This document shows positions 34,349-39,205 of a stretch of DNA of 64,000 nt, in pieces. Under the pieces are notes generated by a model. That model was not told the DNA's origin. It saw nothing but the letters and a program-made list of their open reading frames with translations, and searched no databases. Within the stretch, counting starts at the first letter, position 1. Each line of letters opens with the position of its first letter. Source of the stretch: Thermococcus peptonophilus (GTDB taxonomy: Archaea > Methanobacteriota_B > Thermococci > Thermococcales > Thermococcaceae); NCBI RefSeq assembly GCF_001592435.1, contig NZ_CP014750.1, positions 186,001 through 250,000 of the forward strand. Reading direction: 5' to 3'. Both the position numbers and the translations under genes were made by a program.

Positions 34349-34768
34349 ATGAAGGTTAGGGTAAAGGCGAAGACGTACTCTGAACTCATCAGGAAGCTGG
34401 ACGAGGCCCTGAACGAGGATGTGAGCGAGGTTTATGTGAACCTAAGGCCGACAAAGGAGGTAATCGTCAAAATCCTAGAGCGCTCGCCGAACGTCAGGAA
34501 GATCACATGCCCGCCAAGCCTTTACCCGAAGGTGTCCCAAAAAGTCATCATTGCCCTGAACCAGCTTGGAGTGGAGCTTTTACCCGAAAGCTACCCAAGG
34601 GGCAGGCCAAAGAAGTACGATGAGAAGACGGTAAAACAGGTCGTCGAAATGGCCCGGAAGGGCGTGCCCATGAAAGAGATCAGCAGAAAACTCGGAATAC
34701 CGCTCAGAACCGCTTACTATTTGGCAAATTTATACGCTTCTTCCCACACATCTTTTCGCGGAGAGTGA
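34349..34768 (+). CDS. DUF1699 family protein with C-terminal helix-turn-helix
   Basis: A 139-aa protein. Residues 1-85 match DUF1699 (VRVKAKTYSELIRKLDEAL, then VYVNLRPTKEVIVKILERS). The C-terminal part, KYDEKTVKQVVEMARKGVP then MKEISRKLGIPLRTAYYL, is a resolvase/Hin-like helix-turn-helix, so DNA binding is likely. ATG 34349 follows GGGGTGATTGG and lies four bases after the DUF530 stop. It closes the collinear run that starts at aIF-1A. Confidence 0.8.
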   Translation: MKVRVKAKTYSELIRKLDEALNEDVSEVYVNLRPTKEVIVKILERSPNVRKITCPPSLYPKVSQKVIIALNQLGVELLPESYPRGRPKKYDEKTVKQVVEMARKGVPMKEISRKLGIPLRTAYYLANLYASSHTSFRGE

Positions 34769-34792
34769 GTTTTCATACTACCTGGTGCAGTT

Positions 34793-34802
34793 ATGATTAT
34801 AT
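34793..34802 (+). promoter_or_regulatory. TATA box for the McrBC operon
   Basis: GATTATATAG lies about 40 bases before the GTG start at 34836. It gives the defence genes their own promoter, separate from the DUF1699 transcript. Confidence 0.5.
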
Positions 34803-34835
34803 AGGAGTTGCCTCATATTACTCCGGTGGTTTCCT

Positions 34836-36938
34836 GTGGGCAGATTTGAAATTTCCGAAAACGCGCTTGAAAAAATAGCTGAAAGTCTCAGGGAGGAATA
34901 CGAGGGAAGCAACGTCGATTACGTTATCGAAGATATGAAAATTTCGGAAAACGGGGAATATTTATCGGTACTGATAAGGGACGACTACGACTCCCGGTTT
35001 CTCCACCTCTTTGACGCGAAGGGAAGTCCACTTCCTGGGTGGAAAAGCGGGGTTGGAATTCCCTGCCAGGAGGACGTTGTAATTTTTCCGGGCGTTGAAA
35101 ACGTGGCAGTGTTCATGAAGTGTGGGACAGGGGAAATAACACTCTATCCGTTTCAGGATGAAAACCCAAAAGAAAACGCCCTAAGGGTAACTTTCTCAAG
35201 ACTACCCATCTACGTGAGCCTGACCAACATGGAAAGGGTCGTTATTTTTGGCGACATGAGACTGGACTTCAACGCTCCCGGGGATATTGAGACTGTTTTC
35301 ATACCCCGCCTTCAAGGAGGCTATGCTTTCTTCCATGCAATTTACGATACTGAAGACGAGGTCTACATTCTTCACACGTTCAAAGAGCCCGGGAAGAGGA
35401 ACCCCGTGCTTAGGGTAGGGAGGATAAACTACCCGCCCCACCCGTACTACTCCCCGCTCGAGTTCTGGGATGGTGTGGAGACAATTTCAGCCCATTCCCC
35501 TGCTCCTCCAACAAAGGGAGCGATAGGGGACATCATACTGAGGGACAACGAGCCAATTGCAGTTCTCGGAACAAAGCTTGGAAAAGAGCTATACATCCTC
35601 ACCCCAAAGAAAGCAAGGATAATCCCCCTTCCAGGCGAGCTAGTGTTCACGAAGTTTACCGAAAAGGGCCTCTTCCTGCTTATAGGCCAGTTCAGGGGCT
35701 ATCTTTATGGGGGCTTCGTCACCTATGAAGACCTCCTCGGGAAGAGCTCCCTCAAGCTGGAAGACATTGAGGACAGAACGGTCTTCGGTAGGTACAATCC
35801 GGAAGCCGTCGATCCGAAGTTCTCTGGGATTTCAAGAAATGGCAATATCCTGGTCTTAGGGAAGTCTTCGGGAAAGATAAGCGCCAGTGGCAGATTCTAC
35901 TACTACGTCCGCCCGGATTCGAACTATCTATACTCTTACGTGTCCACGGAGACCATCCAGGGGGAAGAGGAGGTTACCTACGATCAGTACACCCAGCTCG
36001 AAGAAGTGCTCAAAAGGTTTGGAGGGATCATCCTTTATGGCCCGCCTGGAACCGGAAAGACAAAACTAGCCCTAGACCTCTCAAAGGGTGCCGATAGGGT
36101 TGAGGTCGTCACTTTCCATCAGTCATACAGTTATGAAGACTTCGTTGAGGGCTTCAGACCTGTCGAAAAGGACGACAAGCTCATCTACGTCGTTGAAGAT
36201 GGAGTACTGAAGAGGCTTGCAGTTGAGGCGATTTTCCACGGCCTCCATCCCAATTCCGGAGAAACTGACTACGAGAAGAAAAAAGAGGTCGTCCTTAACT
36301 ACCTCCAAACTGGGAACGGGACCTTTAAATCGCGTGGGAAGTTCTACCTCATCATAGACGAGATAAACAGGGGAAACATCTCACGGATCCTTGGAGAAGT
36401 CATAACCCTCATTGATCCAGATAAAAGGCTTGGGGCGGAGTACGAGACCAGGATAACCCTCCCATATTCAAGGGAGCCGTTCGCACTGCCGCCCAACCTC
36501 TACATAATCGGGACTATGAACTCAACTGACAGGAGCATTGCCTTCCTAGACATGGCCCTCAGGAGGCGCTTTGCGTTCCTTGAAATACTGCCCCGCCCAG
36601 AGGAGCTCGGTGATATCGAAGTCGGCGGTGTAAACCTCCAGCACCTCCTCTCAACTCTAAACAGGGTAATCGAAGAGGAGCGCGGGAAAGACTACACGAT
36701 AGGTCACGGCTACTTCAGAGAGGTCATAAAGGCGAAGCCGGAGGAGAGGGCAAAGGCCCTAAAGGACGTCTTCTACTACAAGATACTCCCACTGCTCCAG
36801 GAGTACTTCTACGGAAACTGGGAAACGATACGGCGTTCCCTGCCAGGATTCGGGTTCATAGATGAGAAGGGCAGAATAATCGAGATGGACGACGACGAGT
36901 TCATTGAAGCCCTGCGCAAGCTGGTGACCGAGAAATGA
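34836..36938 (+). CDS. McrB-type AAA+ motor with beta-propeller-like N-terminus
   Basis: Motor subunit of 700 aa of a modification-dependent McrBC-type restriction system. The C-terminal third is the McrB AAA+ domain: Walker A GPPGTGKT at 402-409, Walker B and the McrB hallmark in LIIDEINRGNISRILGE, the MNSTDRSIAFLD sensor region (McrB GTPases carry MNTADRS-type) and ALRRRFAFLEI as arginine finger. Residues 30-385 show at least six repeats of about 45-60 residues, each strand-rich (EYLSVLIRDD, NVAVFMKCGTGEITLYPF, GLFLLIGQFRGYLYGG), which I read as beta-propeller blades. This is not the usual short DNA-reading domain. The GTG start has GGTGG upstream. The mcrC start overlaps the stop by four bases. 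Confidence 0.88.
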   Translation: MGRFEISENALEKIAESLREEYEGSNVDYVIEDMKISENGEYLSVLIRDDYDSRFLHLFDAKGSPLPGWKSGVGIPCQEDVVIFPGVENVAVFMKCGTGEITLYPFQDENPKENALRVTFSRLPIYVSLTNMERVVIFGDMRLDFNAPGDIETVFIPRLQGGYAFFHAIYDTEDEVYILHTFKEPGKRNPVLRVGRINYPPHPYYSPLEFWDGVETISAHSPAPPTKGAIGDIILRDNEPIAVLGTKLGKELYILTPKKARIIPLPGELVFTKFTEKGLFLLIGQFRGYLYGGFVTYEDLLGKSSLKLEDIEDRTVFGRYNPEAVDPKFSGISRNGNILVLGKSSGKISASGRFYYYVRPDSNYLYSYVSTETIQGEEEVTYDQYTQLEEVLKRFGGIILYGPPGTGKTKLALDLSKGADRVEVVTFHQSYSYEDFVEGFRPVEKDDKLIYVVEDGVLKRLAVEAIFHGLHPNSGETDYEKKKEVVLNYLQTGNGTFKSRGKFYLIIDEINRGNISRILGEVITLIDPDKRLGAEYETRITLPYSREPFALPPNLYIIGTMNSTDRSIAFLDMALRRRFAFLEILPRPEELGDIEVGGVNLQHLLSTLNRVIEEERGKDYTIGHGYFREVIKAKPEERAKALKDVFYYKILPLLQEYFYGNWETIRRSLPGFGFIDEKGRIIEMDDDEFIEALRKLVTEK

Positions 36939-38368
36939 GGGACTTTAGGGTCGTGACCCTCTACGAGTTCGAGAACAGGCCTCTTTCCGAGTTGAAGAGC
37001 CTAGGGCTTCAAGCGACTGAGCGGGAGATTATGAGGTTTACAGAAGCGGTGAACGCCCTTTACGGCGGCGACAGCCCTGTCTTTACCGTCACCTATGACC
37101 CGAGGAGGGACGAGTACCACCTAAAGACCCACGGAAGCGTTGGGTTCGCTTACTACTTCAGCGGTGATGAGGTTGTGCTCGTGCAGGTACTCCCAAAACC
37201 CTTCAGGTACGACCGAGAAGACGGCCGCTCCCTACTCTTCTTTCTTCAGCTCTTCAACATGTACTACCAAATGGGTCTCGAACCTAGCGAGATAAGGGAA
37301 ATAGTATCTGAATACGGCAGACAGAAGGCACTGGACGAAATTTTCAGGTACCTCTACGTCCTTATGTTATCTCGAGCACTGTCCCGGGGGCTTTACTACG
37401 AATACGGGGATCTCGAAGAGAGCTCCCAGACGATTCGGGGCAAGATTCTAGTAAACGAACTCGCCCGACGACCACCCTGGAAGGCAGATCTGCCGATAAG
37501 GTACTCCCTTCTTCTTGGGGACAACCCCCTAAACAGAATTCTAAAGGGGGCCCTTGAAGTCGCCGTGAAGTCCGCCCGCCTCAGCGAGACAAGGAAAGTT
37601 GGTGGAATTCTCCTCGACCTCTTTAAGGATGTTGACGACCCCAAAGCCGGGGACTTTGAAAAAGTGTCCTTCAACCACCTGAACGAGAGGTTCAGAACTG
37701 TCTTCAGGCTGGCAAGGGTGATGTACTTTGGGCTGACAACCGGAGGTTCGAGGAGGTTTCTCCCGGGGGTATTCATTAGGATGGACGAGCTTTTTGAGAC
37801 GCTCGTTTACAGAACGCTGAAGACCGTTCTCGGCAATGAGGCTGAGGTGAGATTCCAGGTTCAGCTGCCCCACGTCATAAAAAACGCTGGCGAAATCGAG
37901 GCCAGGTTTGGGGCGCTCTTCATGATGGGCAACCCGCTCCCAGATATAGTCGTGAGCACCAATGAGGGAACCTGCGTCGTTGAAGTGAAGTACAGGAACC
38001 TCTACGTGTACCACAGAGGAGAGAACAGGGCCCATAGAAAACTCGTGAGGAAGAGCGACGAGCTTTATCAGGCCTACACGTACTCCCGACTGGTCAGCGA
38101 GTACTGGGGGACCAGGGAGGTTCCCGTTCTTCTCATATACCCGAGGCTTGAAGGTATCTACAACCACTGGATTCCAAACCTCTTCAGCGCACGCCCAGAG
38201 GATACTTTCGAGTTCTTCGACGGAACTAGAGTTGGGGTCTTCGGGTATGAGCTTTCAATGATAGGGGACGAAATTCTGCTGAGGAAGAACTCGGTGGTCA
38301 TCGACGAGGACACCGCTGAAAACCTGAGGTCGTTCATCCTCGGCCTCTGCTCTTCGGGAGAGGTTTAA
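36935..38368 (+). CDS. McrC-type restriction nuclease subunit
   Basis: A 477-aa partner of the preceding AAA+ protein. The N-terminal 300 residues carry the McrBC system-specific fold (YEFENRPLSEL early, QLFNMYYQMGLEP, then ETIRGKILVNEL-like SSQTIRGKILVNELARR). The C-terminal domain is a PD-(D/E)xK nuclease with D337 in LPDIVVS and E350-x-K352 in VVEVKYR. By family it cuts DNA when the motor translocates from a modified site. ATGA overlap with the motor gene shows translational coupling. Confidence 0.9.
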   Translation: MRDFRVVTLYEFENRPLSELKSLGLQATEREIMRFTEAVNALYGGDSPVFTVTYDPRRDEYHLKTHGSVGFAYYFSGDEVVLVQVLPKPFRYDREDGRSLLFFLQLFNMYYQMGLEPSEIREIVSEYGRQKALDEIFRYLYVLMLSRALSRGLYYEYGDLEESSQTIRGKILVNELARRPPWKADLPIRYSLLLGDNPLNRILKGALEVAVKSARLSETRKVGGILLDLFKDVDDPKAGDFEKVSFNHLNERFRTVFRLARVMYFGLTTGGSRRFLPGVFIRMDELFETLVYRTLKTVLGNEAEVRFQVQLPHVIKNAGEIEARFGALFMMGNPLPDIVVSTNEGTCVVEVKYRNLYVYHRGENRAHRKLVRKSDELYQAYTYSRLVSEYWGTREVPVLLIYPRLEGIYNHWIPNLFSARPEDTFEFFDGTRVGVFGYELSMIGDEILLRKNSVVIDEDTAENLRSFILGLCSSGEV

Positions 38369-38401
38369 AAACCTGCTGACCAACTCCCGTCGGGTGAGAG
38401 A

Positions 38402-39205
38402 ATGTTCGTCGAGACACAGGAAGAAGTTCCCGAAATCAGAGAGCCGCTCCGGAGAGTCGGCATAACTAACCTAAGGACTGTCGCTAAGATAAACTGGAAG
38501 GGAAGGGAGTACACCTTCCTCCCGCTCATAGAGGTAACCATCGACGTGCCAGCGGAGAAGAAGGGCATCCACATGAGCAGGCTCGTGGAGAGCATAACCG
38601 AGGCTATGAGCGAAGCTGTCGAGGAAGAAGTTGCAAAAGTCCACAGCTCCCTAGAGGAGCTTGGAAAGTGCGTCATAGGGCGGCTCGAAGGAAAGCACCC
38701 GCACAAGAGGGCTGAGGTCTGGATCAAGACTCACCTCATCATCCCGAGGATCACTCCGGCCAGCAAAAAGACGAGCTACGAGCCCTACGACGTTGAGGTA
38801 GGCGTCATAAAGAACGAGGACGGCTCCTTCGAGAAGGTTCTGCGCGTCAGGGTGGTAGGGAACACGGCCTGCCCGCACGCCATGGCGAACAACAACGGCA
38901 AAACCCACATCCAGAGGGCCATCGGCGAGCTGGAGATAAGGGCACCCTTTGAGGAGGAAATCCCGCTCGAAGAGATGATAGACGTCGTCGAAAGCTCCTT
39001 CAGCCATCCGACTTACACTCTCCTGAAGACAGTGGACGAGAACGCCGTAGTTCAAGGAATGTACAGAAACCCGAAGTTCGTTGAGGACGTTGCCAGGGAG
39101 ATATTCGCAAAGGCGAAGAAGAAATTCAAAGGCAAAATCCACGTGAAGGTTATCAGCAACGAGAGCATTCACAAGCACGACGTCATAGCCGAGACGTGGA
39201 ACTGA
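38402..39205 (+). CDS. mptA: GTP cyclohydrolase MptA (FolE2 type)
   Basis: A metal-dependent enzyme of 267 aa that opens GTP to 7,8-dihydroneopterin 2',3'-cyclic phosphate, the first step of methanopterin-type pterin synthesis in archaea. Family landmarks are [42 protein letters not shown] with Cys and His ligands, and [18 protein letters not shown] 38402 follows GGTGAGAG. It ends in a T-rich terminator. Confidence 0.94.

What the first reader, a model, noticed from the sequence alone, without database searches (positions are those of the whole stretch)
34836..38368. McrBC-type restriction pair whose McrB has a beta-propeller-like N-terminal half
The AAA+ and McrC nuclease parts are standard, but the first 385 residues of McrB are strand-rich repeats of about 45-60 residues, unlike the short DUF3578, EVE/YTH or B3-like readers known for McrB proteins. 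A YTH-like reader was reported for another Thermococcus McrB. A propeller could sense a phage protein or RNA, or act as a new modified-DNA reader, which would make this a different kind of McrBC defence system. It has its own promoter and sits between housekeeping genes.
Basis: partly seen in the sequence, partly recalled or inferred. Interest (0 to 1): 0.62.

Follow-up and report, generated by a model that had tools for sequence, protein, structure and literature searches.

The report
McrBC restriction pair with propeller reader
A two-gene archaeal DNA-cutting defence system (McrBC) carries, where other such systems have a small methyl-DNA reader, a seven-bladed propeller-shaped domain; the same system, under another name, has already been knocked out in a laboratory relative and shown to limit plasmid uptake, but its unusual sensor seems to have gone unnoticed.

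Summary
Window 34836-36938 encodes McrB and 36935-38368 McrC, with intact GTPase and nuclease motifs. McrB residues 1-371 match no Pfam, NCBIfam, PADLOC or PDB sequence. AlphaFold2 on 21 homologues gives a confident all-beta model of 7 x 4 strands (pLDDT 88.5, pTM 0.86), and the recognisable top Foldseek PDB hits are beta-propellers.

In all 19 testable carriers it sits at one chromosomal site, between topoisomerase VI/DUF530/DUF1699 genes and folE2; non-carriers have 55-948 bp there. It is a stable genus-level locus, not a mobile island. The 91%-identical T. kodakarensis orthologue is TK0795-TK0794 ("McrBC1"). Its deletion strain was the most transformable reported and grew less well, and TK0795 was found on isolated chromosomes. 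Best reading: a working McrBC restriction system whose propeller supplies DNA or chromatin recognition. The ligand, and whether base modification is needed, are unknown. New variant of a known kind; no description of the architecture was found in the open-access library.

The parts
34797..34803 (+). TATA-box-like element (TTATATA), likely promoter of mcrBC
   Evidence: sequence, and T/A-rich boxes at similar distance upstream of most of the 20 homologues; inference
34836..36938 (+). mcrB, 700 aa
   Evidence: the T. kodakarensis orthologue with the same GTG start has computed mass 79.68 kDa against 79.7 kDa listed for TK0795
34836..35948 (+). N-terminal 7-bladed beta-propeller domain, residues 1-371 (helix 8-25, then 7 x 4 strands)
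   Evidence: AlphaFold2 pLDDT 88.5, pTM 0.86; Foldseek PDB hits are propellers
35949..36017 (+). linker, residues 372-394, low confidence and variable
   Evidence: pLDDT below 50 for 373-395; alignment A1
36018..36935 (+). McrB AAA+ GTPase domain, residues 395-700: Walker A 402-409, Walker B 508-514, MNxxDRS 561-567, tandem arginines 576-577
36935..38368 (+). mcrC, 477 aa, nuclease partner; overlaps mcrB stop (ATGA)
37943..37990 (+). McrC PD-(D/E)xK active site: D337, E350, K352, invariant in the 20 McrC sequences aligned
34349..34768 (+). left border gene of the site: DUF1699/HTH protein
38402..39205 (+). right border gene of the site: GTP cyclohydrolase FolE2-type (GCHY-1)

Best explanation
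This is a functional McrBC-type restriction system in which the usual small base-reader of McrB has been replaced by a seven-bladed beta-propeller. McrB forms the GTP-driven ring, McrC docks on it and cuts, and the propellers on the ring choose the target by binding incoming DNA, or a DNA-bound feature, through the conserved face of their loops. Shown here: gene content, motifs, predicted fold, conservation, fixed locus. Shown by others for the 91%-identical orthologue: deletion raises uptake of replicating plasmids, and the McrB co-purifies with chromosomes. Inferred: that the propeller is the recognition module and that it contacts nucleic acid or chromatin. Open: whether base modification is needed.
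For: Motor and nuclease are complete and their key residues invariant across homologues. The propeller model is confident and the Foldseek hits agree. Propeller and McrC distances correlate at r 0.92, and propeller and AAA at 0.94, as expected of one co-evolving machine. The bc and da loops, one face of a canonical propeller, are more conserved than the ab and cd loops (mean entropy 1.09 against 1.38, Mann-Whitney p 0.008) and carry invariant D52, S53, K95, C96, D140, K247, K328. TK0795 is identified as the orthologue by gene order to top6B (TK0799), mass 79.7 against 79.68 kDa, contig length 2,088,737, and deletion sizes of about 3.5 and 3.9 kb. Deletion of TK0794-TK0795 gave the most transformable strain. 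TK0795 is in the mass-spectrometry list of isolated chromosomes. A 7-bladed propeller joined to an Mrr nuclease is an experimentally found anti-phage protein in E. coli.
Against: No direct DNA-binding or cleavage data. The propeller is acidic overall (pI 5.1; 40 K+R against 52 D+E), unlike a general DNA-binder. Chromosome co-purification lists also hold likely contaminants. The transformation paper was read as text only, its figures are not held. TM-scores to known propellers are modest (at most about 0.5).
Confidence: 0.6

Rival explanations
1. The propeller is a modified-base reader like DUF3578 or YTH, only with a new fold: it flips or cages a modified base (5mC, 4mC, or a hypermodified viral base) in an aromatic pocket, and the system is a classical Type IV enzyme. 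(A sub-case of the best explanation as to the target.)
For: The best-studied McrB readers do this. Many aromatic residues are invariant (W69, Y104, Y126, Y204, Y205, W211, Y320, Y355, Y356). The T. kodakarensis authors assume 5mC, and 5mC was below detection in the host. Lysate of the parental strain, which has McrBC1, left dam-/dcm- plasmid uncut, though GTP may have been missing.
Against: Strain trends in transformation were similar with dam-/dcm- plasmid. Methylated plasmid was still degraded by lysate of TS904, which lacks both McrBC systems, so that activity is not McrBC's. T. kodakarensis carries m6A made by TkoI and TkoII, so a general m6A reader is unlikely.
Confidence: 0.3
2. The propeller is a protein-interaction module, sensing a viral or plasmid protein or a host chromatin protein, and DNA cutting is triggered indirectly.
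For: WD40-like propellers are mainly protein-binding scaffolds (general knowledge; many one search hits are of that kind). The domain is acidic. Association with chromosomes could be through a protein.
Against: The orthologue limits uptake of purified plasmid DNA, where no viral protein is supplied. McrB readers of known function bind DNA.
Confidence: 0.2
3. The locus mainly serves a housekeeping role in chromosome maintenance, not defence.
For: Fixed position next to topoisomerase VI in 19 of 19 testable carriers. Chromosome association without infection. The deletion strains reach lower density.
Against: Absent from 40 of 61 species, so dispensable. It evolves much faster than its neighbours (propeller 53%, McrC 57% mean identity against 89-91% for topoisomerase VI). 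It limits plasmids.
Confidence: 0.12

Closest known systems
T. kodakarensis McrBC1 (TK0795-TK0794; PMC13385129)
   Same: Orthologue: 91% identity over the whole McrB and 91% in McrC, same locus, same propeller domain
   Different: Described only as a 5mC/5hmC Type IV system; main text has no occurrence of 'propeller' or 'DUF'
T. gammatolerans McrBC (YTH reader; 6ut3, 6ut5, 6ut7)
   Same: Same motor and nuclease families and the NxxD GTPase motif
   Different: Reader is a short YTH domain that binds 6mA DNA; N-terminus and locus differ from ours
E. coli K-12 McrBC (DUF3578/ADAM reader)
   Same: McrB AAA+ GTPase plus McrC PD-(D/E)xK nuclease
   Different: Reader is DUF3578 for 5mC; none here
E. 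coli anti-phage 7-bladed propeller with Mrr-family nuclease (PMC9519451)
   Same: A propeller joined to a DNA-cutting domain in defence
   Different: Mrr nuclease on the same protein, no McrB-type GTPase motor mentioned; no sequence relation tested
T. kodakarensis McrBC2 (TK1009-TK1010) and the G014 relative
   Same: McrB with a beta-rich N-terminus of about 385 aa and McrC next to it; low-confidence model whose Foldseek hits are also mostly propellers
   Different: No significant sequence relation to our domain (hhalign probability 2.9%)
CoCoNuT McrBC-like systems (PMC11090510)
   Same: McrB-like GTPase with unusual accessory domains
   Different: NxD motif, coiled coils, nearly absent in archaea; ours has NxxD and no long helices in the N-terminal model

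Membership tests
McrBC (McrB GTPase + McrC nuclease) | McrB AAA+ domain with Walker A/B | tested here: met
   AAA_5 2.7e-17; GPPGTGKT 402, DEINRGN 508
McrBC (McrB GTPase + McrC nuclease) | MNxxDRS (NxxD) signature of McrB GTPases | tested here: met
   MNSTDRS at 561, N562 and D565 invariant in 21 sequences
McrBC (McrB GTPase + McrC nuclease) | McrC encoded next to McrB with PF10117 and an intact PD-(D/E)xK site | tested here: met
   PF10117 1.9e-70; D337, E350, K352 invariant; next to mcrB in 20 of 21 genomes, the last cut by a contig end
McrBC (McrB GTPase + McrC nuclease) | GTP hydrolysis, hexamer, DNA cleavage | not testable with these tools
   needs purified protein
Type IV (modification-dependent) restriction | cuts only modified DNA | not testable with these tools
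   published data on the orthologue are equivocal: strain trends similar with dam-/dcm- plasmid, but parental lysate did not cut such plasmid
McrB with DUF3578, EVE/YTH or B3-type reader | one of these domains at the N-terminus | tested here: not met
   no Pfam match at E 1 to residues 1-386; model is a propeller
beta-propeller fold | closed disc of four-stranded blades | tested here: met
   7 x 4 strands, pLDDT 88.5, pTM 0.86; Foldseek PDB hits are propellers, best TM about 0.5. Coordinates could not be inspected, so closure is inferred
WD40 / Kelch / PQQ sequence families | match to the family profiles or repeated blade motif | tested here: not met
   no Pfam match; no blade-to-blade sequence similarity
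CoCoNuT | NxD GTPase motif and coiled coils | tested here: not met
   NxxD present; only one helix of 18 residues in the ordered N-terminal model
mobile defence island | variable genomic location, mobile-element genes nearby | tested here: not met
   same site in 19 of 19 testable carriers; no match in plasmids, phages or viral contigs

The most novel reading that the evidence does not exclude
The propeller reads something other than a modified base (unmodified, oddly supercoiled or histone-free DNA, or a DNA-bound protein). That would make these McrBCs a modification-independent branch of 'Type IV' systems, held at a fixed chromosomal site in Thermococcus and patrolling the cell's own chromosome. 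Divergent propeller McrBs (TK1009 type) would be a second family of the same kind.
Probability: 0.25. Interest if true: 0.75.

Novelty: new variant of a known kind. Interest (0 to 1): 0.56.

Why it matters
The readers known for McrB (DUF3578, YTH/EVE, B3) are small DNA-binding domains, and what the others recognise is an open question. What the propeller recognises is therefore directly testable. If it does not need base modification, the label 'Type IV' would be wrong for this branch.

Tried and rejected
Known reader fold (DUF3578, EVE/YTH, B3): rejected by Pfam and by the model. WD40, Kelch or PQQ sequence families: no profile match. PDB sequence match: only weak chance hits (E 0.05 or above). 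Internal blade repeats: none found by all-against-all profile comparison. Mobile element or defence island: rejected by fixed synteny and absence from plasmids, phages and viral contigs. The same N-terminus on other effectors: none found; all 21 are McrB with McrC. Homology of the TK1009 N-terminus to ours: not shown by BLAST or hhalign; its model is low confidence, so a second propeller family stays a lead. The sigma-70 and terminator scan is uninformative for an archaeon. The weak hit in G109 (E 0.003, 79 residues) was taken as chance. Phyla beyond Thermococcus's own could not be searched exhaustively: genome contigs allows one scan, and its exact-pattern prefilter returned only Thermococcus MAGs.

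Full report
WHAT IS THERE. Two overlapping genes on the plus strand, mcrB (34836-36938, 700 aa) and mcrC (36935-38368, 477 aa), overlap by ATGA. McrB residues 398-579 match AAA_5 (2.7e-17), and its AAA part matches solved T. gammatolerans McrB (6ut3, 5e-69). McrC matches PF10117 end to end (1.9e-70). Walker A (402), Walker B (508), the MNxxDRS signature (561) and McrC D337/E350/K352 are present and conserved in all aligned homologues. The first 386 residues of McrB match nothing in Pfam, PADLOC or NCBIfam, and nothing convincing in the PDB by sequence.

THE FOLD. An alignment of 21 homologous N-termini gave an AlphaFold2 model with mean pLDDT 88.5 and pTM 0.86. It has a short strand (3-6), helix 8-25, then seven consecutive groups of about four strands (about 29-75, 81-120, 126-157, 163-220, 229-264, 268-319, 331-369), followed by a disordered linker at 373-395. 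Foldseek against the PDB gave 166 hits at E <= 0.001. Those with recognisable names in the top 50 are WD40, prolyl-oligopeptidase, RACK1-, Cdc20-, WIPI4- and NirN-type propellers. The best TM-scores are only about 0.5, so this is a divergent propeller. Blade number is counted from DSSP; I could not inspect coordinates.

WHERE IT OCCURS. The domain is in 21 of 61 Thermococcus genomes and in none of the other genera of the order. A profile search of 115 genomes of the phylum added only one weak, chance-level hit. There were no hits in plasmids, phages or viral contigs. Every copy is an McrB. In 20 of 21 the mcrC gene follows directly; in the last the contig ends there, and an mcrC lies on another contig beside folE2. 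Of 28 Thermococcus genomes with any McrC, 21 have this type, so it is the main McrBC of the genus.

A FIXED SITE. Upstream lie topoisomerase VI B and A, a DUF530 gene and a DUF1699/HTH gene; downstream lies a FolE2-type GTP cyclohydrolase. In all 19 carriers with both border genes on one contig, the distance between DUF1699 and folE2 is 3.58-4.71 kb. In non-carriers with intact synteny it is 55-948 bp, of which the roughly 840-bp class fits the length of a DUF4129 gene that shares the site in several carriers. Distances between McrB/McrC copies correlate with those of the neighbouring genes (Mantel r 0.54-0.64, no permutation of 2000 reaching them), yet several groupings differ between trees. 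I read this as inheritance at one locus with local replacement and repeated loss. The propeller (53% mean identity) and McrC (57%) evolve much faster than topoisomerase VI (89-91%), which fits defence better than core housekeeping.

THE ORTHOLOGUE HAS BEEN KNOCKED OUT. Genome G024 is T. kodakarensis by these signs: contig length 2,088,737 (equal to KOD1, from memory); mcrB four genes from top6B, as TK0795 is from TK0799; computed McrB mass 79.68 kDa against 79.7 kDa listed for TK0795; and two McrC loci about 192 kb apart, sized as the published deletions of about 3.5 and 3.9 kb imply. Its McrB is 91% identical to ours, and the pair is the published McrBC1. In PMC13385129, the strain deleted for TK0794-TK0795 (TS902) had the greatest transformation efficiency. 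The trend among strains was similar with dam+/dcm+ and dam-/dcm- plasmid, and the McrBC deletion strains grew to lower density. Lysate of the strain lacking both McrBC systems still degraded methylated plasmid, so that activity cannot be credited to McrBC; on the other side, lysate of the parental strain, which has McrBC1, left unmethylated plasmid intact, though GTP may have been lacking (figure legend). The text alone therefore leaves open whether McrBC1 needs base modification. PMC7325993 lists TK0795 among proteins of isolated T. kodakarensis chromosomes, which fits DNA or chromatin contact without infection, with the caveat that such lists include contaminants.

HOW IT PROBABLY WORKS. Loops of one face (bc and da) are more conserved than the opposite ones (entropy 1.09 against 1.38, p 0.008) and hold invariant charged residues (D52, K95, D140, K247, K328). 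The domain as a whole is acidic (pI 5.1). I infer that this face binds the target, and that the GTPase ring and McrC act as in solved McrBC complexes. Whether the target is unmodified DNA, a modified base, or a DNA-bound protein is undecided. A 7-bladed propeller joined to an Mrr nuclease in an E. coli anti-phage protein shows that such domains do serve in DNA-cutting defence.

A POSSIBLE SECOND FAMILY. The other T. kodakarensis McrB (TK1009 type, L106) and one relative (L107) have a beta-rich N-terminus of similar length with no significant sequence relation to ours. Its model is low confidence (pLDDT 59, pTM 0.57), and the Foldseek hits are mostly propellers with TM below 0.3. This is a lead, not a result.

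NOVELTY. Library searches for McrB or Type IV restriction together with propeller or WD40 terms found no description of such an McrB. The main text of the McrBC census paper contains neither word. Subscription papers and supplements could not be searched, and the JBC paper on the T. gammatolerans reader was not held. I file it as a new variant of a known kind: ordinary McrBC motor and nuclease, new reader fold.

Noticed in passing
L106:1752-4238 (T. kodakarensis McrB2, TK1009 type) and L107:1519-3972: McrB proteins with another beta-rich N-terminus of about 385 aa, unrelated in sequence to the window's but possibly also a propeller.
   Followed up: partly
L048:5998-6825 and similar genes in eight other loci; window site 34769-38401: A DUF4129 membrane-type gene is an alternative or additional occupant of the same DUF1699-folE2 site, making the site a small indel hot spot in Thermococcus.
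   Followed up: partly
L108:3281-6043 and L109:1016-4378: Two McrB proteins with near-identical C-terminal halves and first 240 residues but different middle parts, and an EVE match between Walker A and Walker B of the AAA domain (tested in L108): recent reader shuffling.
   Followed up: no
G068:C6:56139-65857: In this genome the DUF1699 and folE2 genes are about 9 kb apart in opposite orientation, so the site has been rearranged.
   Followed up: no
L118:3001-4134 and L119:2986-4149: Short McrB-like AAA proteins (377-387 aa) without a recognisable reader domain, next to distant McrC matches: a different McrBC subtype in Thermococcus.
   Followed up: no
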